Shown: positions 35,346-63,430 of the stretch, piece by piece
How the letters are laid out: every line of letters begins with the position of its first letter
Numbering within the stretch: position 1 is the first letter of the stretch
Source: Beroe forskalii
Taxonomy: Eukaryota; Ctenophora; Nuda; Beroida; Beroidae
Length of the DNA stretch: 64,000 nt
Assembly (NCBI GenBank): GCA_011033025.1
Contig: WFMF01000037.1
Coordinates: forward strand, 1-64,000
Direction: 5' to 3'
Notes under the pieces: model-generated
What the model saw: the letters and a program-made list of their open reading frames with translations, nothing else
What the model was told of the DNA's origin: nothing
Database searches by the model: none
Program-made: the position numbers and the translations under genes

Positions 35346-35717
35346 ACCATTCTAGTTTTCTAATAAATCAATCATAACTTTTGTGATAGAATGCCATGGA
35401 AATGTACCAGAACATTCATATATTGAAATTTGGAAAAGAGCAAAATAAGAAATGCGTGGGTTAATTTGTCAAACAATCTAGAAATAGAATTGAAACAAGA
35501 AATTGAAACAAAAAATTTGTCTTTTAGACATTCCACGCTCCATCAACCTCACTTCTATGAATAAGATAAAAAATAATCCATTCTTTATAAAGCCTATCAC
35601 ATTCCTTATGTGACATGTGTAATATCAATAACAATCATTATTGAGTACTGATTGTCATAATCAAAGAAAAGAGGTCTGTTGTAGTTTTAAACTCACTACT
35701 TCTACCAAATAAGAAAT
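35346..35717. repeat. Dispersed repeat; target of the LINE insertion
   Basis: Bases 35,527-35,729 are homologous to 39,985-40,165. Across the LINE the homology resumes at 39,602 and runs on, matching 40,150-40,190. The paralogue at 40.15 kb therefore acts as an uninterrupted reference for the insertion site. Confidence 0.7.
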
Positions 35718-35729
35718 ATCTTCAGTTGT

Positions 35730-36845
35730 CTTGCAAAGCCAGGTAAAGATAAATACAATGACCCAAAGTCCTTTAGAATAATAACCCTAAGTTCAAATCT
35801 GCTAAAAATCCTCGAAAAACTAATTCTATGGGATCTGCAAGACGATTTAAATATAGAACAAAGTTTAAACAAGAATCAATATGGATTCAAAAAAGGACAT
35901 AGTACGGAAGCAGCAATTAATAACTTAGTCAACAAAATTCAAGAAGCTCTCAAACATGAAGAACATGCAATGGGCGTATTCCTAGATATAAAGGGGGCTT
36001 TTGATAACTTACCTTTCCACTCCATTAAAAGAGCACTTAACAAAACCAAAGCTAAAGGATTCGTAGCAGACTGGATCATAAATATGATAAGCAACAGAAA
36101 AATAGAATTAAGCTGGGGTGATACTAAAATCACAAGGACCATTAAGAAAGGCTGTCCCCAAGGTGGAGTACTATCACCATTCCTATGGAATCTTGTACTC
36201 GATGACTTACTAAAAATCTTTAGAAAAAGTGACAATATACAAGCATTTGCAGATGATGTCAGTCTACTCAGTACTGGGAAAGATATATATGGAATAAAAA
36301 TAAACACAAAAAACATGGTTGAGAAAATAATGAAATGGTGTAACCAAAACTCACTAGAAATCAGCACACTTAAAACAAAAGTAATTTTCTGGTCTACAAC
36401 CAGGGAAAATAAACACCCAAAATCAATCAAACTTGATGGTCACAAAATTGAGATATCAAAAACAGTAAAATACTTAGGAATAACAATTGATAATAAACTA
36501 AAATGGAATGATCACATCGAGAATGTAGTCAAAAAGAGTAAAAGGCTCTTTTGCCACAAAAGGGCAATAGGTAGCAAATGGGGAATATCTCCACAACAAA
36601 TGCTCTGGATATACAAGACAATCATCATACCGATTATAAGTTATGGATCTATTGTTTGGGCAATGAACCTAACAAAATCACAAATAGCTAAAATAACTCC
36701 TATACAAACTATGGCACAACATATGATAACAAGGTGTAAAACTAGCACTCCCAAAGTACTCCTAAATTTACTCCTTAATATGGCACCAATTGAGTTAAAA
36801 TTAGAAGAAACAGCTTTAAAAAAGAGCATTAACTCTCAAGACTGA
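35730..36845 (+). CDS. LINE reverse transcriptase (long open segment)
   Basis: The frame is open from about 35,733 to 36,845; an internal Met lies at 35,970. Motifs in order: KPGKDKYNDPKSFRIITL (finger region), GFKKGHSTEAAI, FLDIKGAFDN (motif A Asp), GCPQGGVLSPFLWNLVLDDL (motif B), QAFADDVSLL (catalytic ADD, motif C), KTKVIFW, and VKYLGITIDNKLKW (thumb). These are standard non-LTR RT signatures. The polymerase would copy its own RNA at a nicked target. The frame stops at 36,845, before RNase H, which is in another frame. Confidence 0.9.
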   Translation, partial: LAKPGKDKYNDPKSFRIITLSSNLLKILEKLILWDLQDDLNIEQSLNKNQYGFKKGHSTEAAINNLVNKIQEALKHEEHAMGVFLDIKGAFDNLPFHSIKRALNKTKAKGFVADWIINMISNRKIELSWGDTKITRTIKKGCPQGGVLSPFLWNLVLDDLLKIFRKSDNIQAFADDVSLLSTGKDIYGIKINTKNMVEKIMKWCNQNSLEISTLKTKVIFWSTTRENKHPKSIKLDGHKIEISKTVKYLGITIDNKLKWNDHIENVVKKSKRLFCHKRAIGSKWGISPQQMLWIYKTIIIPIISYGSIVWAMNLTKSQIAKITPIQTMAQHMITRCKTSTPKVLLNLLLNMAPIELKLEETALKKSINSQD

Positions 36846-36907
36846 AAGACACTGAAACATGAATAACTATAAAATGAAAAAATACAATCAACACAAGAAA
36901 TAATTGA

Positions 36908-37640
36908 TTGGAAATTAAAAATGTGATAAAAATTGACCCAAACCCAATTTCAGACAAAATTAGTCCTTTCTCAATCTTAAACAAAACATACAAAAACAAC
37001 ATTGAAAACAGGGACAGTATACAAGTGAAAGAATGTGAATCAAACCTTCTAATCTTCACAGATGGGTCAAAAAATGAAAAAGGCAACACAGGAATCGGTA
37101 TAACATTCAGTGAAGAAGAAATAAATGAGGTAGCAGAACCACTCCCAACACACACCAGCATTTACCAAGCAGAAGCAATTGCCATATGGAAAGCTAGCGA
37201 AATCATACGAAACAAAAACTTAAGTAATTTAAATATCGAATTCTACTCAGATTCACAAGCAGTACTTAAGTCTCTAATGAACAAACATACAAAAATGAAT
37301 TAATAAAATGTGCCATAACTCACTTAATGAGCTGGGAGGAAATAACACAGTCAATCTCAACTGGATACCTGGCCACGAAGGTCATGAAGGAAATGAAATA
37401 GCTGACTACCTTGCTAAGAAAGGTTCCCTAAAACAAGTATCAAATCCGCTATATAATAAAGCACCATTCACAACATTTATTAATATCATTAACAAACACT
37501 ACCATAGATCAATAGAAAACAGATTTATATATAGTGATATAGGCTGTGAGGCTAAGATACTTACATCTGGTTTAGTTAAAGCTTATAAATACAGGACAAA
37601 TAAAATGACAAACAAAAATCTTAACACTAAACTATGAGAA
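36908..37640 (+). pseudogene. LINE RNase H remnant
   Basis: LLIFTDGSKNEKGNTGIGIT (first Asp), IYQAEAIAIWKASEI (Glu), FYSDSQAVL (Asp) and, in a shifted frame from 37,308, WIPGHEGHEGNEIADYLAKK (His and last Asp) are the four RNase H blocks. The frame changes at about 37,300. Together with the RT above, this marks a LINE group that keeps its own RNase H. Confidence 0.85.
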
Positions 37641-47705: not shown

Positions 47706-48385
47706 GGAATTTACAGGAATACCGAGTACATGTACATCAATTGAGAAAATCTACTTCACGACTGATACTACACACTGTTTTCAAATGATAGAGATTTCAT
47801 TATCATATCAAATCAACCCAACAGCTTTTTTTCATTAAAATTGAAGTAATATTGTTCAACGACGTAGTTTGAAAACATAAAGCACACTCACCATGTTATT
47901 TAATATCATAATTAAAAACATATATCAACAATTAAAGAATAAGTCCTTAAAACAATAATCCATCCCTTGCTAAACACGTATATCCCTGTCTGCGTTGCGC
48001 CCTTCCTCAGGGAAGCGCCGCGCGCGTACACACACCTATGCGGGCTTAGGAAACGCTGAGTGCGCAGCGCCGCGCACCTTTGGTGCTTAGCAAATTTATT
48101 TAATTTAAACGGAGTTTATCAGACGTTGTCTGACCATTATTTCGCGCGCCCGCCAAAGGCGTAGGGGTCAGACAACGTCTGACAAAACGGAGTAACCATC
48201 AATAGTTACTCCATGTTCATGTTACGGAGCCTTATTTTGCGCGCGCAGGCGCGAACAAACAGGGACACGTAACATGTGATAACATCAGTAGGCAAATTGA
48301 TTTGGAAACGGTTTCACTTTTAAACGCAAACAACAACATAAATCAAGCAAAACAATGAGACACGAAATTTATGACAGATTTCAGT
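47706..48385. other. GC-rich hairpins downstream of the aminopeptidase gene
   Basis: At 48,118-48,185 'tcagacgttgtctgacc' pairs with 'ggtcagacaacgtctga'. Further short inverted pairs follow (ggagtaac...gttactcc; catgttac...gtaacatg). On the minus strand AATAAA lies at about 48,095-48,100, some 290 bases past the stop codon, a possible poly(A) signal. Confidence 0.45.
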
Positions 48386-48529
48386 TCACTTCTTCGCGAT
48401 ATTGTTTTCAAGCCACTCAGCCACAGCCTCACCGTCACGGTCCAGCCAATCAGAGCGAAGTTTGATGCTTTCAAGACATTGCTGTACAGTTCGCTCAGCC
48501 GCCGGTGCTTTATTAGCTTGGAAAAATTC
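48386..48529 (-). CDS. NPEPPS: NPEPPS-like last exon g
   Basis: 144 bases from phase 0 to the stop; acceptor CTTATTTCAG. Encodes EFFQANKAPAAERTVQQCLE and ends EWLENNIAKK. Matches FFESHPAPSAERTIQQCCEN of the human protein. Confidence 0.88.
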   Translation of the reverse strand, partial: EFFQANKAPAAERTVQQCLESIKLRSDWLDRDGEAVAEWLENNIAKK

Positions 48530-51500
48530 CTGAAATAAGATTGGAGATTAGCATAGGTGCCCAAGAAAATTTTTGGGCAGCACAGCGCGCATATTAGTTT
48601 ATGTGCACGCGCGCGCGCCGCGCAAAGAGAGTATTTTCTTGAAAATTTGCGTACTTCGATTAACGTTAAATTAGCCGCGCCTTACATACAGGAGATGATT
48701 CCGCGAAGTGGATGCAGATTTGGGACAAAGCGCGGCGCGAAAAAAGTTGTTTTATGCGTGAGCCGTCGTTACGAACTAGTTCGGCCGATATCCTTCAGTA
48801 TTCTCTTGGAAGATTAAGTCTCTATTCCTTATATGACAAAGTGTCCGATTTGAAAATTGCCCGAGGAATCTTGAGGCACTGCAGTTCCATTTGTAGCATT
48901 CTGAGGGGACATAATAAAAACTCCTCTTTATTGAGTAGTGCCCCTGAACTCGAACATACTTTGTAACCTTGGCAAGCTCCACTAAGGGGCCATCCATAAA
49001 AGCACAACGGACGAGGGAGTCTGGCCAATGCGGACATAGGGGGAAGGGGGGCTGTTTGGCCAAGTGCGTACGTCCGCAGTTTACGGTAATTTTGGCCGAT
49101 TTGACGGGCATTTCACTAGAAAATCGTGAAATTTCGTACCCAAATTTGATGACTGAATATATATTCAGGAAAAAAATGCGGATAATGGTGCGTGGCAATC
49201 CACAACAGATCTGTTTCTGTAAATTTTGTTGGAGAGAGTAAGGAACCAATTTGGGCCCATGATGACACAATTGGCCCGTGAAAGGTTGGGCATTCTTTGG
49301 AACTATCCTAAAAACCATTTGATATGATCACTGGAGGTTACAAAATACCGCTTATGTAGACAGAAGACAGAAAATCAATATCTCGAATTTGTCTACTTCG
49401 CATCCACTTTGTCGGAATCATGAAATCCTTCCATAGCAGAATATACCAGTTTGAGACGAAATTCCAGTTTGAGACAATGCGCGCGTCTAAAATTGTACCG
49501 GGTGGGCCAAAACTCAAAAGATCGTTACAAAAAGTAACGCACTGTAACTTTGGTTTTGTTTGGAGTTAATTAATGAAACTTTGGGATGTCATACGCATGT
49601 ACGATACAATTTTACCAAAAATGTCTACCTCGAAAAATGCCCGAGTAATCAACGAAAAAACCAGTTTATTTGCCATATCTCAGCTTCTGGGACTCAAAAA
49701 TGTTAGCTACTCCAGGGTCATATTGGTCAGATGTAGCCCGAAATATGCTGAAAGTTTCATGAAGATTGCTCAAAAAACCTCGGAGATATGCGCCTTTTTG
49801 TTACAGCGCGTTGCTTTTGTAACGTTCTTTTTGGCCCACCCGGTATTTATTGATTTGATGTGGCCGATATTAGGCATTTTTCGAACGTGACCCTACTATA
49901 GTCTACTACTGTAGTAGACTAGTACTACTTAAGTGCTTTGCCTCTTTTCAGGTTAACAAATTATAACTTTGGGTCCATGACACGAGCAGCCCAACACTCT
50001 AAAATTACACACTGGAGTGACTAACCTTGACTTCTCCATACATCTTCATATCAGTGAAGTAACTGCAGCATGCACCAATGAGTCTTTTAAAGAGGAACCC
50101 ACCGGTGTACCTGTGGAATTAACTTTTTAAGCCACAGAGTGATTCTTAACAAATTGCCAAGTTCCTAAACCACATCTATAATCTTTCAAAGCCAGAGTGT
50201 AGTGATTCTTGACAAATTGCCAAGTTAACTAAGTCCTAAACCACATCTAACCTTTCAAGCCAGAGTGTGTAGTTATTCTTGACAAATTGCCAGGTTTCTG
50301 CCCTTCCTTCCCATCCAGACCCAGAGACAGCAGCAATGACGAAGGGCGTGTCGTTAGAACGGACTTTGTCACTAATGGCAAATTCTAGAGTCTTATGTCG
50401 CAGTGTTGGACAGGGCCTGAAATTGCAGCGTTGAAGCAAGGTGAAATTACAAAGTTACAAGTAAATGCAGAGTAGAAAGTTTTGAGCCCTGCCATTTTAC
50501 TTGAAACCCCCTAGGCCTCAATCATCATCGCCCAGAAAAAAACTCACGCAGCTCTCAAAAAACCCTCGCAACCCCAGAAAAAAATCTCAGAAAACACGCA
50601 GCCCCCAGAAAAAACTCACAGCTCCCAGCTCCCAGAAAAACTCACGCAGCTCCCCAGAAAAACTCACGCAGCTCCCAGAAAAACTCACGCAGCCCCAGAA
50701 AACTCACGCAGCTCCCAGAAAAACTCACGCAGCCCCAGAAAAAACTCACGCAGCTCCCAGAAAAACTCGCCCCAGAAAAACTCACGCAGCTCCCAGAAAA
50801 CTCACGCAGCCCCAGAAAACTCACGCAGCCCCCAGAAAAACTCACACGCAGCTCCCAGAAAAACTCACGGCCCCCAGAAAACTCACGCAGCTCCCAGAAA
50901 AAAACTCACGTAGAAAAACACGGCTCCCAGAAAAACTCACGCAGCTCCCAGAAAAACTCACGCTCCCAGAAAAACTCACGCAGCTCCCAGAAAAACTCAC
51001 GCAGCTCCCAATGGCCCCAGAAAACTCACGCAGCTCCCAGAAAACTCACGCAGCTCTAGAAAACTCACGCAGCTCCCAGAAAAACTCACGCAGCTCCTGA
51101 AAAACTCACGCTCCTAGAAAACTCACGGCTCCCAGAAAAACTCACGCAGCTCCCAGAAAAACTCACGCAGCTCCCAGAAAACTCACGCAGCTCCCCTGAA
51201 AACCAACAGCCCCAGAAAACTCACGCAGCTCCCAGAAAAACTCACGCAGAAAACTCACGCAGCTCCCAGAAAACTCACGCAGCTCCCAGAAAAACTCACG
51301 CAGCTCCCAGAAAAACTCACGCAGCTCCCAGAACACTTTGGATCCTGACTCTCTCCTCGTGAAGGTCGGTCTTGTGGAACAGGTCGAGGAGCTCAGAGTA
51401 CGTCTTGTTAGAGTCCGAGCTGCCGCGGATAACTGTGCTGTAGACCGAACCTCGGATGTCCGCGGGAATCAGACCGCCACCGCTGGGAATTAAGAAGTGT

Positions 51501-54500
51501 GAGAAATAAGTATTTTGATCTACAAACCACAGTACAGAAGTAATGTGATTTGATCCTTCCACAATATTATCTCTGTGTTCCATACCTCTGCGTATAATAA
51601 GACCTATAAAGCTGTAATACTGATAGTTCTCAAGGTTTTTAAGGAAATTTGATAATTTGATCGGCGTGGGAACATCTGTGAAATATGCATCATTTTTTTC
51701 TTTGAGTAGAATCAGGACGAAGGTTGAAATACGAGAAGAAGATAATAAACGTCTCTGCCAAGACGCCTCACCAGTCACCTGGTGTGTTTGTTGAAGAGTT
51801 CCAAGCACCGGCTAACGACCTCCTGGTCAGCACTCTTGCCCAGGGTCCCTATGAGCATGTCTCTAAGCAGGGACTGCGTGTGGGCCTCCTCCGCCCCCTT
51901 CTCCCATCCCACCTCGCTCAGGATCCGGGAGAAGATGCGCCGTCGCAGGGCTTGGAACTGTGTAAAGCATGCGTGTGAAGCAGTGTCACCTGTGCTGTGT
52001 CACCTGCTCAGTGTCACCTGTGCAGTGTCACCTGTGCAGTGTCACCTGTGTAAAGCAGTGTCACCTGTGTAAAGCAGTGTCACCTGTACTGTGTCACCTG
52101 TGCGAAGCAATGTCACCTGTGTAAAGCAGTGTCACCTGTACTGTGTCACCTGTGTAAAGCAGTGTCACCTGTGTTGTGTCACCTGTGTAAAGCAGTGTCA
52201 CCTGTGCTGCGTCACCTGTGTAAGAGGCTAAAGCAGTGTCACCTGTGCAGTGTCACCTGTGCAGTTTCACCGGCTCAGTGTCACCTGTGCTGTGTCACCT
52301 GCTCAGTGTTACCTGTGCAGTGTCACTTGTGCTGTGTCACCTGTGTAAAGCAGTGTCACCTGTGTAAAGCAGGGGAGATGACTGAAGAGGGAAGCAAGCT
52401 CTGAGAGGTTGGTGTTTATACTTTCCAACACAACGTAGTTCCGTTCATTGACGAAGGAGCCCATCAGCGTCAGCAGGTCAGGCGTAGAGCAGTAACCTGA
52501 AGAGGGGCGGTGTGAGTGTTCATTCTACGAGATGTACAATGTACAATGTAAATCTTTTACATTGTACAATGTACAATGAACATTGTACAGCTTGTAGAGT
52601 GTACAATGAACATTGTACATCTTGTAGAATGTACAATGAACATTGTAAATCTTGTAGACTGTACATTGTACATTGTACAGCTTGTAGAATGTACAATGAA
52701 CATTGTATACTTGTAGAATGTACAATGTACATTGTAAAGCTTGTAGACATGCCATTACACACTTTTTCGAGCTAGTGGGGGCCGAGGCCCCTCCCTAGAT
52801 TTTTTCTAGGGGGGGGGGGGTTTCAAAACTAGGGGGGACAAAATTTACGTAGCAAATTTTGGTTTTTCATAGCCTTAATTTTCACTATTTTGCATAAACA
52901 TGCAACGAAAATCATGTTCTTATTATATTGATTGGTTTAAGTCTAAAAAGGTGAATTTCAGGAAAATTTCTGTCTAACTAAACTTAATGGTAGCTTCTTT
53001 TCGATGTTCAAATTTTTTAGAAAATCCTAGGTAGGGCCAAGGCCCCCCCTAAGATTTTTCTAGGGGGGGCTTTTGAAAACTAGGGGGGCCTGGCCCCCAT
53101 AGGGGGGGCGTGTAGTCCCATGCTTGTAGAATGTATATTGTACAATGTACATCTTGTAGAATGTACATCTTGTAGAATGTACATTGTACAATATACATTG
53201 TACAGCTTGTAGAATGTATATTGTACATTGAAAGGTTTAGTAACGAGTAAAAATTACTAAACGTCATATTACACACGAGGGCCGAAGGCCCGAGTGTAAT
53301 ATATGAATTGGAAGGCCGAGGTTTTTAATGCTGAGTTTAGTAATTTTACGGTTATTAAACTGAATTATGCACCGACTTTACTCGAAAAAATGGCAATATT
53401 TTCAAACACAAGGAAATGTTTTATATTAAGATTTGAAGGTACAGTTTGCTCAACTGTGCGAAATAAATTATTATGCACCTTCCAGGCGTGTATATGCTAT
53501 GTATTCAAAAACCCTATAGGCACCAGGGTACCGTGCGCAATAAATTATTGCGCACTGTAGGTCATAATAATTTATTATGGTGCAGTAGAACAGTGCGTAA
53601 TAATTTATTTCGCACAGTTGAGCAAACTGTACCTTCAAATCTTAATTTAAAACATTTCCTTGTGTTTGAAAATATTGCCATTTTTTCAAAGAAATCGGTG
53701 CATCCAATTTAATAACTCGTAAAAGTACTAAACTCAGCATTAAAAACCTCGGCCTTCCTTATTCGTTTTTTTCAATGCCATATTCGAACTTGGGCCTCCG
53801 GCCCTCGTTAATAAGTGGTGACGTTTAGTTTCAAAGGGACTCGTTACTAAACCCTTCATTACGCACTGTTCTACTGCACCATAATAAATTATGACCTACA
53901 GTGCGTAATAAATCCCAGTTTCGGCACTACAGTGCGTAATAATTTATTGCACACGGTACCCTGGTGCCTATAGGGTTTTTGAATACATAGCATAAACACG
54001 CCTTGGAGGTGCATAATGTACGATTAGATGCGTCATTCCACGCCGTTATAAAAGTACATATTAATAACTGTAGAAGTCATCCGAAAAATTGGATTCGTAT
54101 CGCAGAAATAATGAATAAATCTCAGGTGCCCGTTGCAAAATAAATGAAATGTAGGTATAATAATCTAATAATGTTTGCAATGAATGAAATGTGTATTTTA
54201 ATCTACAAACTACAATGCAGAATTGCTGTAGTTTGGACCGTGCATATCTCAGAGTTAGGAGAGAACAACATAATATGAACCATTATACCGTTTGATACAC
54301 TGCATTATGCACCTCCGAGGCGTGTTTATGCTATGTATTCAAAAACCCTATAGGCACCAGGGTACCGTGTGCAATAAATTATTACGCACTGTAGTGCCGA
54401 AATCCGGATTTATTACGCACTGTAGGTCATAATAATTTATTATGGTGCAGTAGAACAGTGCGTAATAATTTATTTCGCACAGTTGAGCAAACTGTACCTT

Positions 54501-54881
54501 CAAATCTTAATATAAAACATTTCCTTGTGTTTGAAAATATTGCCATTTTTTCGAGTAAAGTCGGTGCATAATTCAGTTTAATAACTCGTAAAAATTACTA
54601 AACTCAGCATTAAAAAACCTCGGCCTTCGGCCTCGGTTTTTCAATGCCATATTACACACTCGGGCCTTCGGCCCTCGTGTGTAATATGACGTTTAGTAAT
54701 TTTTACTCGTTACTAAACCTTTCAATCTAATTCAATACATTTAAATCAGTTTTACCAGCTTTAGCGAGGGCGAACAAATCGTCCTGGATTCCAAGTCTAT
54801 CGGCCGCCTCCAGGGCCTGGTTCTTAATGGCAGGGAGCAGTCTTTGAAGGAGGGCACTACTGTACTTTACTCTGAATAAAC
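48386..54881 (-). CDS. NPEPPS: Puromycin-sensitive aminopeptidase (M1 family), C-terminal exons
   Basis: Seven GT-AG exons were traced on the minus strand: 54,756-54,881, 52,360-52,496, 51,779-51,957, 51,321-51,482, 50,252-50,416, 50,026-50,110 and 48,386-48,529. All phases join and the total gives 331 residues plus stop. The product runs from GLFRVKYSSALLQRLLP through ADRLGIQDDLFALAKAG, FVNERNYVV, IPADIRGSVYSTVIRGSSDS, SVLGAAP, VSGSGWEGRAETWQFVKNN and YTGGFLFKRLI to APAAERTVQQCLESI. This follows the helical ERAP1-C-like domain of human NPEPPS with almost no length change. The family cleaves N-terminal residues from peptides in the cytosol with a zinc HExxH-E site, which lies further N-terminal and is not in the window. 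Upstream exons should lie above 54,881; only the end of one is suspected, inside the 55.0 and 63.1-63.4 kb arrays. The C-terminus (WLENNIAKK) is complete. Confidence 0.85.
48982..49300. repeat. Dispersed repeat in last intron (pairs with 59,007-59,290)
   Basis: Both copies start CTAAGGGGCCATCCAT and share 'catttcactagaaaatc'-like and 'acgtccgca' segments. Family unknown. Confidence 0.65.
49498..49843. mobile_element. Mariner-like MITE (346 bp) in last intron
   Basis: Ends CCGGGTGGGCCAAAA and TTTTTGGCCCACCCGG, with a wider inverted match including 'gttacaaaaagtaacgc', bounded by TA on both sides. TA targets and these ends fit the Tc1/mariner group. No transposase. Confidence 0.7.
50026..50110 (-). 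CDS. NPEPPS: NPEPPS-like exon f
   Basis: 85 bases, phase 2 to phase 0; acceptor ATTCCACAG, donor TCAAG|GTTAGT. Encodes YTGGFLFKRLIGACCSYFTD and MKMYGEVK, matching the YQGGFLISRLI...GEVK block of the human protein. Confidence 0.82.
50111..50251 (-). repeat. 141-bp intron e-f made of two diverged copies of exon e's tail
   Basis: On the minus strand the exon end 'TGGCAATTTGTCAAGAAT...CTGGCTTGAAAG' plus donor flank 'GTTAGATGTGGTTTAGGA' is followed by two further copies of the same ~63-80 bases. The second copy runs straight into the acceptor TTAATTCCACAG. The whole intron is thus a tandem duplication of the exon-intron junction. Confidence 0.85.
50252..50416 (-). CDS. NPEPPS: NPEPPS-like exon e
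   Basis: 165 bases, phase 2 to phase 2; acceptor CAATTTCAG, donor GAAAG|GTTAGA. Encodes TLEFAISDKVRSNDTPFVIA and SGWEGRAETWQFVKNNY. Confidence 0.86.
50530..51335 (-). repeat. 21-bp minisatellite in intron d-e, each unit holding exon d's end and donor
   Basis: On the minus strand the unit is TTCTGGGAGCTGCGTGAGTT, about 35-40 copies. Exon d ends GTTCTGGGAGCTGC|GTGAGT, so the first unit is the real junction and the rest repeat it. The plus strand is open for 199 codons (KLTQLPE-type repeats); this is a by-product. Confidence 0.92.
51321..51482 (-). CDS. NPEPPS: NPEPPS-like exon d
   Basis: 162 bases, phase 2 to phase 2; acceptor TAATTCCCAG, donor GCTGC|GTGAGT. Encodes GGGLIPADIRGSVYSTVIRG and HKTDLHEERVRIQSVLGA. 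Confidence 0.88.
51779..51957 (-). CDS. NPEPPS: NPEPPS-like exon c
   Basis: 179 bases, phase 0 to phase 2; acceptor CTTTACACAG, donor CACCAG|GTGACT. Encodes FSRILSEVGWEKGAEEAHTQ and LLRDMLIGTLGKSADQEVV. Confidence 0.85.
51958..52359 (-). repeat. Intron b-c made entirely of 14- and 19-bp units with splice-like ends
   Basis: On the minus strand units read GTGACACTGCTTTACACAG or, shorter, GTGACACTGCACAG. Every unit starts with a donor-like GTGACA and ends with an acceptor-like CACAG. The array starts at the true donor after exon b (CTTTACACAG|GTGACA) and ends at the true acceptor before exon c (CTTTACACAG|TTCC). Confidence 0.92.
52360..52496 (-). CDS. NPEPPS: NPEPPS-like exon b
   Basis: 137 bases, phase 1 to phase 0; acceptor CCTCTTCAG, donor TTTACACAG|GTGACA. 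Encodes LLTLMGSFVNERNYVVLES and ELASLFSHLPCFTQ. Its last 13 bases are themselves a unit of the intron array that follows. Confidence 0.85.
52515..52746. repeat. Minisatellite of self-complementary ~30-bp units, left block
   Basis: Units combine 'cttgtagaatg' with 'tacaatgtacattgta', the latter self-complementary. The array resumes at 53,124-53,232 after an inserted stretch. Confidence 0.85.
52747..53123. mobile_element. Insertion into the minisatellite, with poly-G blocks
   Basis: About 377 bases split the array. Two related blocks ('ttttctaggggggg' followed by 'aaaactaggggggc'-like sequence) lie at 52,800-52,840 and 53,055-53,090. Possible imperfect inverted ends 'catgccattacacac' and 'gcgtgtagtcccatg'. 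Type uncertain. Confidence 0.45.
53124..53232. repeat. Minisatellite, right block
   Basis: Continuation of 52,515-52,746. Confidence 0.8.
53227..54726. mobile_element. Composite 1.5-kb foldback element in intron a-b
   Basis: ATTGAAAGGTTTAGTAACGA at the left and its exact inverse at the right open arms of about 240 bases or more, nearly identical. Each contains hairpins with GGGCCGAAGGCCC or GGCCGAAGGCC. A third copy of the terminal structure lies inverted at 53,700-53,855. An inner segment ('aaaaaccctataggcaccag') occurs at 53,510, inverted at 53,960 and direct at 54,340. It reads as one foldback element with a second, truncated copy joined to it. Confidence 0.75.
54756..54881 (-). CDS. NPEPPS: NPEPPS-like exon a
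   Basis: 126 bases, phase 1 at both ends; acceptor GTGTTTCAG, donor GCTG|GTAAAA. Encodes GLFRVKYSSALLQRL and ADRLGIQDDLFALAKAG, the signature start of the C-terminal domain in this family. Confidence 0.88.
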
Positions 54882-55008
54882 CTGAAACACGCTAGGAATA
54901 ATTGGCATGAATATATATTGAATTCCATTCATACTGTAACAGAAACGTATCCAAGAATTCAAAAACCCAACTTTAAAAGTTCTTCTAAATTCGATTTCCA
55001 ACCCGCAT
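54882..55008. other. Short spacer upstream of exon a
   Basis: No feature recognised. Confidence 0.4.
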
Positions 55009-55133
55009 TCCTGATTAGGGTTGACTTTGACCCAATCATACACCCAACTATCTGATTAGGGTTGACTTTGACCAAATCATACACCCAACTGTCTGATTAG
55101 GGTTGACTTTCACCCTATCATATATGACCCAAT
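55009..55133 (-). repeat. ~40-bp tandem repeat carrying a likely NPEPPS exon end, three units
   Basis: On the minus strand each unit reads 'GGGTCAAAGTCAACCCTAATC' (variants) = WVKVNPNQ. This is what should precede GLFRVKYSS of exon a (human QWVKLNLGTVGFYRTQYSS). The same array with about nine units is at 63,050-63,430. Confidence 0.65.
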
Positions 55134-55693
55134 GACCCATGGCTGACTTTGAGTTCTTTCAGAGTTTCAGGTGACCACCGACCCCATGCCCATACAAGTA
55201 AATCGGTAACCCATATGTGTGCAGACCGCTTGATTGAAAAAAGCCTCGATGAAGACGCGCGAAATTGTGTGCTTTTGACGGAATTTGTATAGAAAGTTAA
55301 AGCGCGCAGAGGAAATCCGCGCGTCTTTATCGAGGCCTCTGTCAATCGAGCGGTCTGCACACATATGCGTTATAGGCTAACTCAAGTAATTCTTGAATTC
55401 ACTTCACACATAAAACATACTGTGTGTTTCCTTTGCCTCAGAATTTTGGCTACAGTTAAATTCGAGACACTCTACAAAATAATATTACTTCTAAGTTACA
55501 CAACGCTGTTTGGTCGCTTTGATTGAAAGAGGGTTAGTCCAGACTTACCTAAGCCCCTACACTCCTACATGGTAAATTGCCCATGATTGCTTCAATTGCC
55601 GGATGCCTCATTGTCCAGTGGTCTAATTTATTTCTAATTTAAGAATTTATTGAAAAGTTATTTCCATGTGGTACAACATAAAGAGAGACAAAG
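55134..55693. repeat. Long direct repeat D1 with internal foldback
   Basis: About 560 bases, over 90% alike to 63,431-63,982 by eye. It contains a foldback at 55,208-55,371: CATATGTGTGCAGACCGC...GCGGTCTGCACACATATG, with arms of about 48 bases including 'aggcctcgataaagacgcg'. D1 and D2 flank the PLAT-repeat gene. Confidence 0.85.
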
Positions 55694-55740
55694 CAGGGGC
55701 GTAGCCAGGGGGGAGGCGACGCAGGCGACTGCGATTTTGG
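55694..55740. mobile_element. hAT-like terminus, 5' end only
   Basis: CAGGGGCGTAGCCAGGGGGG matches the left end of the complete element at 58,198-58,374. No right end is found nearby. It begins exactly where D1 and D2 stop matching. Confidence 0.5.
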
Positions 55741-55927
55741 TTATAAATCGAGAGTTACAAGCAAGCTGACATTGGTTTGCTAAACACACATCATTTCATG
55801 TGCCCCAGTTTGTGATGATTCCCAGTGTGTTGATTATGAAAATAATTTATTCTGTGAATTCAGTTGTGTGTAAAAGTTTCAGAAATTTCAACTCTTCGTG
55901 ACACCTGATAATTTGTAATCTATCACG

Positions 55928-56183
55928 ATGCACTGCACAAGTTTTGTTGGGCTCCTTCTGGTGGTTACTACGTTTCAACTCCTTCACCTTGGTAGTGGAG
56001 CTGACTGCAAGGACTCAGAAAAGGACTTCAAGATTTACGAGGAGAAGTGTCTGAAGATTGGCTATGAATCAACCTTAGCAGGATGCAAATCACAGGGAGA
56101 CCCATCGCAGCTGAGCAAGAAGCAAAGGAAGAAATGCGATAAGATCAACGAGAAACTTGGAGCATGTGAGGTGACATGTGAAG
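55928..56183 (+). CDS. Exon 1: signal peptide and six-cysteine domain
   Basis: Hydrophobic leader then a 61-residue Lys/Cys-rich domain, ending CEVTCE + G. The donor is one base into a Gly codon. Confidence 0.72.
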
Positions 56184-59100
56184 GTAAGAAACTTTTTTTC
56201 CTTCACACTCTCGGATTTCAAGAAATTAATCAACGTATACGAAAATACAAATGATAAATTTATACATTATGGAACGAAATTTGTGGGTTTAAAAAACATG
56301 TTTCTTGTAGGGGTGGGAAGAAAATGGGTGATATGTTTTTTGGTATCTCCATGTGCTTCGAAGAAGTCTAGAACCGGTTTTAGGTTCAAATCTTGAAAAC
56401 TCGTTGATTCTCCCCCGCCATTTTTACTTTTTTATAACTATATTTGCCAAATTATTCACGTTAGACACTTCTAATTTCTAAACCAGGGAACATACCAATC
56501 AACTGTAAGAAACATATTAAAATTGGTCTGATCAGAAATTTGCCCATTTGATGGGCTAAAAACGACCAAAATTAAAAATTGACGTACATGACCAAAAGTG
56601 ACAAACTGCTATATCTCAGCAAGGCAAGGTGCTAGCGACCTGGGACCAAAGTATTTCACCATCTAATCCTACCATTAGTGGGGATAGAACACTGAAGAAT
56701 GAAAATTATCTAGGAGGCTTATTTCGCTGATTTTGTTGATAATGAAATGTCCAATTTTCAACTAAAGTAGGCGTTCTAGGATGTTTTCATGGTGTTTCCA
56801 CCCACTAATGGTAAGATGAGATGGTAGAATCCCAAGAATAAACTCTGTCCCAAATATCCAGCGCCTCCCTGGGTTGAGATGTAGCATCTTGCCACTTTGA
56901 GCCAAGTGTCTGAAATTTGGTACTTTTTAGGGCATCAAATACATCAAATAGGTGTCTGTGTCTGTGCTACTGGAGTTGAAAGTTGGTGATAGGTCAGAAA
57001 GGTACATGCTAGACTTGTGGCAGTGATCCATCAGGCTGGTGAAAGTGGAACGTGAGCGTTTTTTATGAAATTTTTCAATTTTACAAGCATTTCTCAACGC
57101 AGACTTTTTGCTATTTCATCTAGATAAAAATAATTTTTTATCTAGATAAACCAATAATTTATTTTGACGAATTATCGGAGATAATCATCGGTTTCAATTA
57201 TCGGACTGGAAAGCCTAATTGAGAAGTGTTCAGCTAATAAAAATTGGTCTGAGAGTTGAAACAAAATCTCTTTATGAGCAATGCTTTTTTTCAAATACCA
57301 AAAATAATCAACAAAATCAGTGAAATAAGCACCCAAGAGTTTGCCATTTTTGGCCTTGCATATCAAATTTGGTCCTATTTAGCCCATAAAAAGGCATATT
57401 GTTTCTTGCAATTAGATAAATATATATTATATAACGATCGTTATATAATTCTTGCTCCGATAATTTTTGTTATATAACAGCTTCAAAAATTAATTTTGAT
57501 GGTCGATTTACATTTTACATGAGATTTTAAAATTTTCGAAATTTTGGGGTGTGATAATTTTTCCAAGTGTGTGATAACTGTACAGTTATCACTCCCCTCA
57601 AAGAACAGTTATCACACCTTTGAAGAATTATCACACCCCAAAAATTAAACCTTTAGAATTTTGTGATTCGTATTTATTTACTATTCAAAATCATTTGAAC
57701 CTGTCAATGCTCTCACTCAATTGCGATACACCAGTGTATACATCTTATGTTATCTTGTTTTGGTTTCATGAGTTTATGCAATCACCGTTCACATTACTCG
57801 TTATATGAGCCGCGCACCCACGTGCCAGTAAAGCAGTAAGACCACTTGCTCACACTTCATTACGATACACCAGTGTATACATATGATGTTATCTTGTTTT
57901 GGTTTCATGAGTTTATGTATACTTGTTGGTCATTATATGAGCCGCGCACCCACGTGCCAGTAAGACCACTTGCTCTCACTCAATTGCGATACACCAGTGT
58001 ATACATCTTATGTTATCTTGTTTTTGTTTCATGATTTTATGTATACTCGTTATATGAGCCGCGCACGCACGTGCCACAAGGACCACTTACCCTCACAACA
58101 TGTCTATATCATGATACACGAGCGTATACATATTATATTTTGTTGCTTCGGCGTGATGTTTTCTTGTTTTGGTGTTTTGAATACTTGTTGTACAGTGCAG
58201 GGGCGTAGCCAGGGGGGCGGCGACACAGGCGGCTGCCTCCCCTTTTTGGACAGACAACATGATAATTTTGTTAATTTTGTTGAGATGAGAGCTTTGAGTC
58301 AAGCAAAATAAAACATTCAACAGGTTGTGAATGTAACTCGCCACCTCCTTTTCAAAAATCTAGCTACGCCCCTGGTACAGTGTACACGTTGGTGAATGTC
58401 GCTTGTTTGAATGTGCCCGCCATTCGCCAATAAATGTGCGTCCGTTACTGTGTTACACACACGGAAATGATCTTTCTATTTTGTTTCGTCATAGCCTAAG
58501 AAATATTGACATTGTCATACATTTCAATCGGCAAACACTTCATTACATAGTACCTAGGTGAATCAAAAGATATGACCAAAGTTTATGAATATTTCGGACT
58601 TGCGTTTTTATTCATACGGCAAATTTAAATATACATAGCTACTCTTCACCATCTAATCTAAAATTCCCGGCCACTTCGAAGCTTGATTTTTTCAAGATTC
58701 AATTTGAAGCCCTCTAGTTCAAAGGATTTTTATATTTAAAAGCTTATAAATTTTCTTTCTTATTGGAAAACCAGTTTCAATCTCCTCCCGTTTCTCACGT
58801 TATATAATAGATTAATCAAACACCCTAAGGATACGTTTATATCAATTATCACACTCGCCTTCGGCTCGAGTGATAATTGGAATTATTGCACTCGCCTTCG
58901 GCTCGAGCAATAATTCGAATTATCACACTCGCTTCGCTCGTGTGATAATTCATATAAACGTATCCTAAGGGTGTTTGATTATCCTATATTATCTAGTTAG
59001 AGGTGTCTAAGGGGCCATCCATAGAGGACGTCCGCAATGAGGGAGGAGTATGGCCAATGCAGACGTAGGGGGGGTGTTTAGTCAAATGGGGACGTCCGCA

Positions 59101-61473
59101 ATTCATGGAAATTTTGGGCGAATTGGTGGCTATTTCACTAGAAAATCATGAAATTCCGGGGCCAAAAATGATGACCCAAAAATTTTTCAGGAAAAATTTG
59201 GACATCCAGGGGCCGGGGGGAGGGAGGGTTTTCTGGATTGTGGACGTTTACGGACAAGGAGGCGGGGGAAGGGAGGGGTCTGAAATAGCGAAAATTTTGC
59301 GGACGTATGGACATGAGAGCTCAAAAACCTTCGAAAATGGAAAAAATTGGTGGGGTATTAACGAGTTTTCAAGATAATGTCTGACTGATCAACTTGCAAA
59401 TTTATCAAATATCTTCCAGTTACCAGAGTCATAAAGCATCAAAAATTACAGATTGAGTCTCTGACTTTATAATTTTCTATCAAAAATAGTTTTTCCCCGT
59501 TTTTTCTTTTAACTGATTCTGATTTTTCTATTTGATGACTGACCAAGCTTAATTTCAAGGAGAAAAAACGACACAGTACACAATCACTCACGAAACTGGA
59601 AGTGGCATCTACGATGGCGGATCTTCAGAAGGATATATGTTCACCATAATCGGAGCAAAAGGTGAAACAAGTCCCCATGATTGTCCTGCAGCCAGAGGGA
59701 AAACTGAGATTGGACAATGCACAATAGAGGATGATGCTGACATTGGAGAAATCAAAGAAGTTAAGATATACAATTCTGGAGATGACTGGTGGCTTTTCAC
59801 ATCTCTCACTGTCAACGGAAATCATGTTGGAGGTGGAAGTGTAGATGACTACAAAACTGAAGTATACCCTGCGTATGGAAAGGACGCATCTGAGTATAAA
59901 GTCCTTTTTGAAACTGGAAGTGGACAATAATTATGATGGAGGGTCTAGCAAAGGATATATGTTCACCATAGTCGGTGCGAAAGGTGAAACAAGTCCCCAT
60001 GATTGTGTAGCAAACAGAGAAAAGGGAACTTCTAACGGCTGCACTTTTTATGATAACACCGACATTGGAGAAATCAAAGAAGTTAAGATATACAATTCTG
60101 GAGATGACTGGTGGCTTTTCACATCTCTCACTGTCAACGGAAATCATGTTGGAGGTGGAAGTGTAGATGACTACAAAACTGAAGTATACTCTGCGTATGG
60201 AAAGGACGCATCTGAGTATAAAGTCCTTTTTGAAACTGGAAGTGGACAATATGATGGAGGGTCTCGCCAAGGATATATGTTCACCATAGTCGGTGCGAAA
60301 GGTGAAACAAGTCCCCATGATTGTTTAGCAAACAGAGAAAAGGGAACTTCTAACGACTGCACTTTTTATGATAACGCCGACATTGGAGAAATCAAAGAAG
60401 TTAAGATATACAATTCTGGAGATGACTGGTGGGTTTTCACATCCCTCACAGTCAATGGATATCATGTTGGATGTGGAAGTGTGGATGATTACAAAACTGA
60501 AGTATACCCTACATATGGAAAGGACGCATCTGAGTATAAAGTCCTTTTTGAAACTGGAAGTGGACAATATGATGGAGGGTCTAGCCAAGGATATATGTTC
60601 ACCATAGTCGGTACAAAAGGTGAAACAACTCCCCATGATTGTGTAGCAAACAGAGAAAAGGGAACTTCTAACGGCTGCACTTTTTATGATAACGCCGACA
60701 TTGGAGAAATCAAAGAAGTTAAAATATACAATTCTGGAGATGACTGGTGGCTTTTCACATCTCTCACTGTCAATGGATATCATGTTGGATGTGGAAGTGT
60801 GGATGATTACAAAACTGAAGTATACCCTGCGTATGGAAAGGACGCATCTGAGTATAAAGTCCTTTTTGAAACTGGAAGTGGACAATATGATGGAGGGTCT
60901 AGCCAAGGATATATGTTCACCATAGTCGGTGCGAAAGGTGAAACAAGTCCCCATGATTGTGTAGCAAACAGAGAAAAGGGAACTTCTAACGGCTGCACTT
61001 TTTATGATAACGCCGACATTGGAGAAATCAATGAAGTTAAGATATACAATTCTGGAGATGACTGGTGGGTTTTCACATCCCTCACTGTCAATGGATATCA
61101 TGTTGGATGTGGAAGTGTGGATGATTACAAAACTGAAGTATACCCTACATATGGAAAGGACGCATCTGAGTATAAAGTCCTTTTTGAAACTGGAAGTGGA
61201 CAATATGATGGAGGGTCTAGCCAAGGGTATAAGTTCACCATAGTCGGTGCGAAAGGTGAAACAACTCCCCATGATTGTGTAGCAAACAGAGAAAAGGGAA
61301 CTTCTAACGGCTGCACTTTTTATGATAACGCCGACATTGGAGAAATCAAAGAAGTTAAGATATACAACTCTGGAGATGACTGGTGGGCTTTCACATCCCT
61401 CACTGTCAACGGGCTTAATATTGGAGGTGGAAGTGTGGATGATTACAAAACTGAAGTGTTCGGTATCCAATAA
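55928..61473 (+). CDS. Secreted cysteine-rich / PLAT-repeat protein gene
   Basis: Exon 1 is 55,928-56,183 and exon 2 is 59,560-61,473. The donor GAAG|GTAAGA and acceptor TAATTTCAAG|GAG are both phase 1 and join CEG to EKTTQYTI. Residues 1-25 (MHCTSFVGLLLVVTTFQLLH LGSGA) are a signal peptide. Residues 26-86 carry six Cys (27, 41, 53, 70, 80, 84), loosely ShKT-like, starting CKD. Exon 2 holds six PLAT/LH2-like domains of 106 residues with YKVLFETGSG, FTIVGAKGET, HDC...C, ADIGEIKEVKIYNSGDDWW and SLTVNG. PLAT domains bind lipid or protein surfaces, so an extracellular matrix or lipid-binding role is possible. The frame changes once between units 1 and 2. A TATA-like 'ttataaat' lies near 55,740. 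No poly(A) signal was seen close by. Confidence 0.72.
57541..57645. mobile_element. Nested-hairpin MITE in the intron
   Basis: 'ttttggggtgtgataatt' and its inverse 'aattatcacaccccaaaa' enclose inner pairs ('gtgtgataactgt'/'acagttatcac'). Confidence 0.7.
57700..58140. repeat. Tandem repeat, period ~125-138 bp, four units
   Basis: 'gatacaccagtgtatacat' at about 57,725, 57,863 and 57,988, with a variant at 58,114. Units also share 'gttatcttgttttggtttca' and 'gagccgcgcacccacgtgcc'. Confidence 0.85.
58198..58374. mobile_element. hAT-like MITE, 177 bp, 8-bp target duplication
   Basis: Ends CAGGGGCGTAGCC and AGCTACGCCCCTG are inverse with one mismatch. GTACAGTG flanks both sides (58,190-58,197; 58,375-58,382). 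The 8-base duplication and CAGGGG ends fit hAT. No transposase. Confidence 0.85.
58813..58981. mobile_element. MITE with inverted ends and three internal hairpins
   Basis: TAATCAAACACCCTAAGGAT and its near-inverse close the element, with 'acgtttatat' continuing the arm. Inside, three hairpins in a row have arms AATTATCACACTCG, AATTATTGCACTCG and AATTATCACACTCGC around CTTCGG- or TTCG-type loops. Same plan as 40,525-40,713 with different sequence. Confidence 0.8.
59007..59290. repeat. Dispersed repeat (pairs with 48,982-49,300)
   Basis: Starts CTAAGGGGCCATCCAT as in the partner; carries two 'acgtccgcaa' segments. Confidence 0.65.
59560..61473 (+). CDS. Exon 2: six PLAT/LH2-like repeats
   Basis: Units: 59,577-59,894, 59,895-60,216, 60,217-60,534, 60,535-60,852, 60,853-61,170 and 61,171-61,470, then stop. 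All are 318 bases except unit 2, which is 322. Four extra bases near 59,927-59,931 shift the frame, so unit 1 ends in TAA at 59,930 and units 2-6 are open in another frame. Units 2-6 differ at only a few positions (GNHVGGG/GYHVGCG, WWLF/WWVF/WWAF), so the array is recent or homogenised. Unit 1 is most diverged (HDCPAARGKTEIGQC). A minus frame of 381 codons at 60,325-61,470 is a shadow. Confidence 0.78.
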
Positions 61474-61910
61474 CAGGAATACTCTTGATTTTGTCCCATT
61501 TTAAAGAGGGAATGTAGAAGTTATAGAGGGAATGTAGAAATCTTAAGCATATTGCATGAATGATAGACAGACTCTGGTTGGAACGTTTAGGGCTACGGCA
61601 ACGCCGTCAGAATATTATTGAGCTTTTGAACTAATATGATTAGACCAGAGGCCCATTGGGCCTTCTAGCTTTCTAGGTCAAAGGAAAATCAGCCATAGAA
61701 ACGAAAACCTTCTCTTACTTATTCGAATGGACCATACTTTTTTAGTAGCACAGCATGACATTGATAGCAGCCTGAATGTAAGGAATTTGTGAATAAGCTT
61801 ATTTAAACATCATTTTTTCAAAAAGGTGACAGTATAGTGCCAATTTTTTCACATATTATGTTAGTTTGGACATCTCTAGTGATCAATTTTTTTTGAATTT
61901 GATATTTCCT
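61474..61910. other. 3' flank with a terminal-hairpin fragment
   Basis: AGGCCCATTGGGCCTTCTAG at about 61,651-61,670 resembles the hairpin ends of the Helitron-like units, but their core is absent. Confidence 0.4.
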
Positions 61911-61914
61911 TATT

Positions 61915-62710
61915 TGTAGCAACTGAGGGGTTATTAAATCCTAGACAGATTAGAGAAAACGGAAAAAATGCCCTATTTCATAGCTTTTGGCCATTAAGGT
62001 ATTAATCCATCAAAGAAGTGTTTAGTCCTCCAAAAGTAATTGTATCTTAGAGGTCTAAAGTTATTGATCTAGAGGTCAAAAAGCACTTTCTTGGTCAAAA
62101 TTAAGGAATTTATGACATTGTGATGTTTGAGGCTAACGCAAAGTCCAATTCTTTAATAAAATCATGGGGAGGAAGACACTTATCCTCACCTGAGATCTGA
62201 CAACATATCCCAGTAGGTATTTAAAATTTTTGAGGTGATCCTAGACAGCTCCAGCTTCATTTTGTTATTACAAGAATATGTCTTTACTGGCTTGCGTTGC
62301 TGTTTTGAGGCTAAATTTTGTCGTGATATATCTGAAAACCTGGATTTCACAGTTTTTAGCCATTTCATGCATCAAAAGATCAAAGAAGTGCTTGAGTCCT
62401 CCCAAATTTATTTTATCTTAATCAAGAGGTCAAAAATCAAAATACACTTCTTTGGTTCAAATTTAGAAATTTTTGACCTTGTGTTGTCCATTTGAGGCTA
62501 AAAGAAGGTAAATTTTTTGATAAAATCCCGGGGAGGAAGTCTCTTTAACGTCACCTGGGAGCCAACAACTCATCCATTGTGCAAAATTTGGGTTTGAGGT
62601 GATCCTAGACAGTTTTAGCTTTCTTTTTGGTATCAAATATTATATGTTTTCATTGGCTTGTGTTGTGGTCTTGAAGCTAAAATCAAGTTGTGACATCCGA
62701 AAACCAAATT
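61915..62710. repeat. Diverged tandem repeat, period ~300-370 bp
   Basis: 'cctagacag' occurs at about 61,940, 62,241 and 62,609. Between them 'ttgaggctaa', 'aaatcatggggaggaag' (62,160; variant 62,524) and 'aagaagtg' recur in the same order. Non-coding. Confidence 0.7.
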
Positions 62711-63045
62711 TTGGAAAATGGGCCCAAGATAAACCTCTGAGGGACACCGAAAAGAGGCAGGACCATTTTAATACCACTAACTTGTAGCCACCACTCAACA
62801 AATGAAATTGTATGAAATTATGATCAAATTAATATGTTAATTAATTAGTCCAACACACAGTCTCTGATGTAAAACTTTCAGACAGTAGGGATTCTAATTT
62901 AAAAATTGCTTTGCATTTGTTTGTGCTTTTGGGAGAAAAACAAGTGGGCCCTAAAATTCACTTTCAACCTAAAACACGATAAATTTTGGTTGAAAGTGAG
63001 GGGATTTGAAATGGTGCAACCAAGGAGATTTTTCCTTTTGAAAGC
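62711..63045. other. No recognisable gene
   Basis: A short inverted pair ('tttcaacctaaaa' / 'ttttggttgaaa') lies near 62,965-62,996. Nothing else was recognised. Confidence 0.4.
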
Positions 63046-63049
63046 CAAC

Positions 63050-63430
63050 CCAATCATAAACCCACCCATCTGATTAGGGTTGACTTTGACCCAATCATAC
63101 ACCCAACTATCTGATTAGGGTTGACTTTGACCCAGTCATACACCTACCTATCTGATTAGGGCTGACTTTGACCCAATCACATACCCAACTATCTGATTAG
63201 GGTTGACTTTGACCCAGTCATACACCCAACTATCTGATTAGGGTTGACTTTGACCCAGTCATACACCCACCCATCTGATTAGGGTTTACTTTGACCCAAT
63301 CACATACCCACCTGTCTGATTAGGGTTGGCTTTGACCCAATCATACACCTACCTATCTGATTAGGGTTGGCTTTGACCCAATCACATACCCACCTGTCTG
63401 ATTAGGGTTGGCTTTGACCCAATCATATAT
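63050..63430 (-). repeat. ~40-bp tandem repeat with a likely NPEPPS exon end and donor, about nine units
   Basis: On the minus strand the unit nearest the right edge reads YDWVKANPNQT ending CAGACAG|GTGGGT, a good donor in phase 1. That is exactly the phase exon a needs to give NQT-G-LFRVKYSS. Other units read WVKVNPNQ with donor variants (CAGATAG|GTAGGT, CAGATAGTTGGG). The full upstream exon is not visible, since the frame meets a stop about 25 codons upstream. Confidence 0.68.

What the first reader, a model, noticed from the sequence alone, without database searches (positions are those of the whole stretch)
50026..63430. One aminopeptidase gene whose introns are built from copies of its own splice junctions
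At four introns of the NPEPPS-like gene the tandem repeat in the intron is made of exon tail plus 5' splice donor. The cases are the presumed exon upstream of a (55.0 and 63.1-63.4 kb), b-c, d-e and e-f. Array lengths range from two copies to nearly forty. Minisatellites are common in this genome, but in-register anchoring to real splice donors in four of seven introns is not expected by chance. It suggests recurrent slippage or duplication starting at AG|GT-type junctions. It may be intron birth or remodelling by tandem duplication, a model proposed long ago for single cases. It also means the spliceosome faces many identical donors.
Basis: partly seen in the sequence, partly recalled or inferred. 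Interest (0 to 1): 0.93.

Follow-up and report, generated by a model that had tools for sequence, protein, structure and literature searches.

The report
Introns filled with copied splice junctions
In an aminopeptidase gene, and in several unrelated genes of the same genome, introns contain tandem copies of the end of the preceding exon together with its splice signal, a kind of repeat described before in lancelets under the name 'mirage'.

Summary
A puromycin-sensitive aminopeptidase (NPEPPS-like) gene on the minus strand has arrays of exon tail plus 5' splice donor at three introns inside the window (b-c, d-e, e-f). The fourth case is real, but its exon ends at contig position 79010, beyond the window; the arrays at 55.0 and 63.1-63.4 kb are detached copies without a recognisable exon. 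An inverted second copy of the 3' half on the same contig encodes the identical 284 residues, yet these introns differ in length (402 vs 156, 904 vs 550, 141 vs 132). Exon tails align without gaps to relatives, so the arrays were copied from exons. Other M1 peptidase genes, one kinase gene and two ubiquitin-hydrolase genes show the same: 10 of 62 donors assigned. Array 5' edges lie at donors more often than their density predicts (p about 1.5e-6; 3 of 27 in unrelated families, p 0.024), but donors were assigned by eye, not blind, and a cruder test was not significant. Acceptors are affected too (3 of 44). This matches amphioxus 'mirages'. The organism was not identified; protein divergence argues against a lancelet (inference). 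Remodelling of introns fits better than birth; b-c is the best birth candidate. RNA and a genome-wide count are missing.

The parts
54756..54881 (-). exon a of the NPEPPS-like gene (LFRVKYSS...LFALAKAG)
   Evidence: identical in the second copy
52360..52496 (-). exon b; its tail CTGCTTTACACAG is the exon part of the b-c unit
51958..52359 (-). intron b-c, 402 bases, nearly all array of CTGCTTTACACAG|GTGACA and shorter GT...AG units
   Evidence: 156 bases in the second copy
51779..51957 (-). exon c
51483..51778 (-). intron c-d, no array (296 bases; 94.9% identical to the second copy)
51321..51482 (-). exon d; its tail TTCTGGGAGCTGC is the exon part of the d-e unit
50417..51320 (-). intron d-e, 904 bases, array of TTCTGGGAGCTGC|GTGAGTTT from the junction to about 50588; acceptor TTTCAG outside the array
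   Evidence: 550 bases in the second copy
50252..50416 (-). exon e; its last ~38 bases are the exon part of the e-f unit
50111..50251 (-). intron e-f, 141 bases, degenerate copies of the exon-e tail plus donor (TRF 50163-50296, period 70)
   Evidence: 132 bases in the second copy
50026..50110 (-). exon f
63048..63427 (-). detached 41-base array, 9.3 copies, same unit as the array that follows the exon ending at contig 79010; no recognisable exon here
55011..55122 (-). detached 41-base array, 2.7 copies, no recognisable exon here

Best explanation
These are mirage-type minisatellites: DNA tandem duplications that span a real exon-intron junction, so each copy carries the exon tail and its 5' splice donor. 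The arrays then grow, shrink and exchange sequence with the junction, while selection keeps the first copy, the coding exon end and its donor, working. Shown: the units, their register with homology-defined exons, the same structure in unrelated genes, and length change between two gene copies with identical protein. Inferred: the exon-proximal donor is the one used; the duplications arise by replication slippage or unequal exchange and are more frequent, or better kept, at junctions than elsewhere.
For: Gene model and units. Exon tails align without gaps to P0001 and P0002, whose proteins run through the b, d and e junctions, so the arrays derive from exons. Second copy: 0 of 284 residues and 9 of 854 exon bases differ, while array introns differ 402/156, 904/550, 141/132. 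The exon-b donor is GTGACACTG in one copy and GTGAGTGG in the other, so junction and array exchange sequence. Same structure in C432 (two introns), C271, a kinase and two UCH exons. Array 5' edges at donors: 10 of 62 against 2.3% expected. Of 96 downstream donors tested, 94 would shift the frame or add a stop in the phases I assigned.
Against: The random-position test was not significant (8 of 44, p 0.10-0.16). Donors were assigned by eye, several after their array had been seen, and some share contigs and families. Array units show little excess of donor motifs over reversed units (35 vs 22 of 142 at 7 of 9 matches). Donor and acceptor rates do not differ significantly (10 of 62 vs 3 of 44, p 0.13). 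Polarity evidence is mixed. No RNA.
Confidence: 0.62

Rival explanations
1. Ordinary minisatellites land anywhere in a repeat-rich genome. Selection removes those inside exons; those that just touch a junction survive because the first donor still works. No junction preference exists.
For: 10-12% of random positions have a nearby downstream copy; the window alone gives 76 TRF rows; array units have little excess of donor motifs.
Against: Edges within the last 8-60 exon bases: 10 of 62 against 2.3% expected; 3 of 27 in unrelated families, p 0.024.
Confidence: 0.25
2. Intron birth by tandem duplication of an AG|GT-bearing exon segment (Rogers model): the first copy gives the donor, the last the acceptor.
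For: In b-c the exon tail and the intron tail match over 12 bases here and 14 in the second copy, and units run GT...AG. In copy 2 the e-f intron also ends TTGAAAG|GT like exon e. The intron before exon a lies inside an exon in two paralogs.
Against: In d-e the acceptor lies outside the array. The C432 array follows an exon end near which other M1 exons also end. Exon c does not begin with GTGACA as the simple model needs. No outgroup intron positions were available.
Confidence: 0.09
3. Assembly artefact: collapsed or misjoined repeats.
For: The second copy is inverted on the same contig and could be a misplaced haplotype; reads were not available.
Against: Different units with non-identical copies recur on several contigs, each in register with its own exon.
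Confidence: 0.04

Closest known systems
Mirages of amphioxus: Adh3, globins, troponin C, PGBD5 (PMC3087553, section 16 read; PMC3902484, one passage)
   Same: Tandem repeats spanning exon-intron boundaries, on either side of the intron; many copies keep AG/GT signals; copy number differs between haplotypes or copies; proposed as a source of new introns.
   Different: Those are lancelets, from a handful of genes; here the protein divergence argues against a lancelet (inference) and 10 of 62 sampled donors are affected. Normal splicing was reported there by RT-PCR; no RNA here.
Intron gain by tandem duplication of AGGT segments (Rogers model; passages of PMC4974935; Zhuo et al. seen only in reference lists)
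   Same: AG|GT-bearing segment duplicated, peptide unchanged; exon and intron ends match in b-c.
   Different: Gain is not shown here; up to tens of copies; in d-e the acceptor is not in the unit.
Variable internal tandem repeats at human exon-intron boundaries (passages of PMC2812944)
   Same: Minisatellites at exon-intron boundaries of recently duplicated genes.
   Different: There they often change the transcript; here 94 of 96 downstream donors would break the reading frame.

Membership tests
Mirage (amphioxus type) | tandem unit spans an exon-intron boundary in register with a real exon | tested here: met
Mirage (amphioxus type) | both 5' and 3' intron boundaries can be duplicated | tested here: met
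   10 of 62 donors; acceptor side clear in C271 and L052, weak in L059
Mirage (amphioxus type) | copy number differs between haplotypes or copies | tested here: met
   402/156, 904/550, 141/132 bases between two copies; whether they are haplotypes is unknown
Mirage (amphioxus type) | normal splicing in spite of extra splice signals | not testable with these tools
   no RNA; relatives' proteins read straight through the junctions
Mirage (amphioxus type) | found in a cephalochordate | tested here: inconclusive
   organism not named; C-terminal part scores 211 bits over 283 residues against the solved human-type enzyme, the catalytic part 439 bits over 259; cox1 search unanswered
Mirage (amphioxus type) | somatic length instability | not testable with these tools
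   no reads
Rogers-type duplication-born intron (b-c) | donor and acceptor lie in copies of one duplicated segment | tested here: met
   exon tail and intron tail share 12-14 bases
Rogers-type duplication-born intron (b-c) | downstream exon starts with the sequence that follows the duplicated AG | tested here: not met
   exon c starts TTCC, the unit continues GTGACA
Rogers-type duplication-born intron (b-c) | intron absent in outgroups | not tested
   no outgroup gene structures held
Introner-type elements (definition recalled) | one dispersed sequence family forms many introns | tested here: not met
   each array has its own unit, copied from its own exon

The most novel reading that the evidence does not exclude
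In an animal-like lineage outside the lancelets, splice junctions are hotspots of tandem duplication, so that perhaps one donor in six to nine is followed by copies of itself and introns are continually rebuilt, and sometimes born, from their own exon ends. Arrays whose units run GT...AG, such as b-c and the 22-base UCH array, would then work as ladders of recursive splice sites.
Probability: 0.33. Interest if true: 0.82.

Novelty: new member of a known kind. Interest (0 to 1): 0.6.

Why it matters
How introns are born and remodelled is an old question with few young, readable cases. Here junction arrays look common and young, and two gene copies with identical protein differ mainly in array length. 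That makes it possible to ask which of many near-identical donors is used, how arrays grow, and whether duplication makes introns. If the organism is not a lancelet, mirages are wider spread than the papers I found report.

Tried and rejected
Random-position null for donor duplication: not significant. It counts array interiors, so an edge test was used afterwards.

Ungapped junction matching scored the e-f and kinase cases low because of indels; replaced by gapped scoring.

Donor motifs in array units against reversed units: 72 vs 68, 35 vs 22, 7 vs 4 and 1 vs 1 of 142 at thresholds 6 to 9; not convincing.

Polarity (newest copies next to the exon): the first half was more like the first copy in 7 of 9 arrays, nominal p below 0.05 in three; the first third was more uniform than the last in 6 of 9, the opposite in three. 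Left open.

The exon upstream of a was first placed at 63.4 kb by frame and donor, then corrected to 79010 because the sequence before it at 63.4 kb did not fit relatives and the 79 kb exon did. Recount unchanged, 10 of 62. Tables for that array, and five of the 96 donors, used the detached 63 kb array.

Donor list: assigned by eye from frame and GT. The 40 kinase/UCH/DEAD loci were picked from search lists before their DNA was seen, but L079 and L080 junctions were written down after one search had shown their arrays, and M1 and L067 arrays had been seen. Of these 40 loci 27 gave a donor; left out were L050, L051, L053, L055, L056, L057, L060 (near copy of L058), L063, L073, L076, L083 (near copy of L082), and L052 and L066 (no GT at the match end). 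M1 matches L001, L038 and L040 gave no donor; the duplicated C271 exon was counted once; the second gene copy was not counted. Acceptors: 31 listed, and 13 more taken from match starts with a wider window.

Organism: protein search gave four unnamed relatives; cox1 searches unanswered.

Full report
GENE. On the minus strand lie six exons of a puromycin-sensitive aminopeptidase: a 54881-54756, b 52496-52360, c 51957-51779, d 51482-51321, e 50416-50252, f 50110-50026. Joined, they give 284 residues matching residues 547-827 of a solved puromycin-sensitive aminopeptidase with one 2-residue gap. The catalytic half lies on the same contig at about 84.8-87.8 kb, with HELAH and WLNE in the aligned part. 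The exon before a ends at contig position 79010 and encodes ...GAKPGDWVKVNPNQIG, so the intron before exon a is about 24 kb and holds a block duplicated between 55.7-63.3 kb and 64.0-79.0 kb, in pieces.

ARRAYS. Read on the minus strand, intron b-c (402 bases) is nearly all CTGCTTTACACAG|GTGACA units and shorter forms; 22 of 24 copies found have GT at the junction. Intron d-e (904 bases) starts with TTCTGGGAGCTGC|GTGAGTTT repeated, 35 of 36 copies with GT; its acceptor lies outside the array. Intron e-f (141 bases) is degenerate copies of the exon-e tail and intron start, period about 62-70. After the exon ending at 79010 the 41-base unit TATGATTGGGTCAAAGTCAACCCTAATCAGATAG|GTGGGTG repeats. The arrays at 63048-63427 and 55011-55122 have the same unit but no recognisable exon. 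None of the eight donors assigned in the catalytic half, nor those of a, c and f, has an array.

DIRECTION. The exon tails HLPCFTQ, QSVLGAA and WLER align without gaps to P0001 (84% identical), and the first and last also closely to P0002 (63%); these proteins run straight through the junctions. P0003 has DWVKINPQQIG at the other junction. The exon ends are older than the arrays, so the arrays were copied from them.

SECOND COPY. Contig 118420-121694 carries the same six exons in inverted orientation. Residues differing: 0 of 284; exon bases: 9 of 854; intron c-d 94.9% identical. Array introns differ: b-c 402 vs 156, d-e 904 vs 550, e-f 141 vs 132; intron a-b also differs, 2259 vs 1279. The exon-b donor is GTGACACTG in copy 1 and GTGAGTGG in copy 2, so array and junction exchange sequence. 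The last bases of exon b and of intron b-c match over 12 bases in copy 1 and 14 in copy 2. Whether the two are paralogs or haplotypes is unknown.

OTHER GENES. C432, an M1 paralog: a 49-base unit ending CCTATAGGAAG|GTAGGTA, 11.9 copies, and a 34-base unit CTTTGACAGTG|GTAAGTACTGAG..., 12.5 copies. C271: a 40-base unit ending AACGAG|GTAGGGG, 4.3 copies, and a detached array of the same unit at 187.3-188.3 kb, 24.6 copies. Kinase L067: ATCATCCTCAACAAG|GTAACTTTACAATG, three copies found, the last decayed. UCH exons: L079, 36-base unit, two copies; L080, CCCTTCCACTCTAACAG|GTGAT, ten copies. Acceptor side: C271, CTCTCAG|GTGGACGCTAACCTGTAC, kinase L052, and a weak 18-base case in L059.

STATISTICS. 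62 donors were assigned by eye: 15 here, 20 in other M1 exons, 27 in kinase, UCH and DEAD exons; not blind (see Tried and rejected). Counting random positions, 10-12% have a nearby downstream copy, and 8 of 44 donors is not unusual (p 0.10-0.16). Counting array 5' edges, 71 in 163 kb, 2.3% of donors should have one 8-60 bases upstream; 10 of 62 do (p 1.5e-6): 4 of 15 here, 3 of 20 in other M1 exons (p 0.01), 3 of 27 in unrelated families (p 0.024) (recount). Acceptors: 1 of 31, or 3 of 44 with a wider window for the 13 added; donor against acceptor p 0.13. Independence is only approximate.

HOW IT LIKELY WORKS. A duplication that spans the junction leaves the coding exon and its donor as first copy, so it can be neutral while splicing uses that copy. 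Of 96 downstream donors in nine arrays, 94 would shift the frame or add a stop, so selection should act against their use. [quoted passage not shown] Why edges favour junctions is inferred: duplication may be more frequent there, or a constrained first copy may keep re-seeding the array.

KNOWN OR NEW. The kind is known in lancelets as mirages. In the held open-access library the two papers that I opened for it are both on lancelets; one search listed eight papers, some others with the word 'mirage' that I did not open, and one search listed 12 of 176, of which only those two hold 'mirages'. The original Adh paper (Canestro et al., recalled; seen only as a citation) was not read. The organism here is unnamed: 216-Mb assembly, window GC 39%. 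Its C-terminal part is far more diverged from the human-type enzyme than its catalytic part (211 bits over 283 residues; 439 over 259), which I take as arguing against a lancelet; that is inference, without a lancelet sequence in hand.

Noticed in passing
window 59592-61457 and contig 71.9-75.2 kb: A 318-base coding repeat (5.9 copies, ETGSGQYDGGSS...) inside the large intron of the aminopeptidase gene, on the opposite strand and duplicated next to the window; Pfam gave only scattered weak matches with no stretch passing on its own.
   Followed up: partly
window 35691-37300: LINE-like reverse transcriptase (RVT_1, E 2.6e-38) followed by an RNase H frame (E 3.7e-8).
   Followed up: no
contig C436 86392-85997 (minus): Two adjacent, diverged copies of one aminopeptidase exon (FYNDYFEIAYPLPKMDLIAIP and FYADYFELKYELPKLDLIAIP); possibly alternative exons.
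   Followed up: no
C271:187.3-188.3 kb: Detached array, 24.6 copies, of the junction unit of an M1 exon that lies about 34 kb away; no exon seen beside it.
   Followed up: no
C44:54511-55749 (minus): An M1 peptidase with an uninterrupted 885-residue open frame, unlike the multi-exon paralogs; possibly intronless or foreign DNA.
   Followed up: no
contig C436 116418-123458: Inverted duplication of window 48290-56920 on the same contig, about 94% identical in the longest matches; paralog or misplaced haplotype is undecided.
   Followed up: partly
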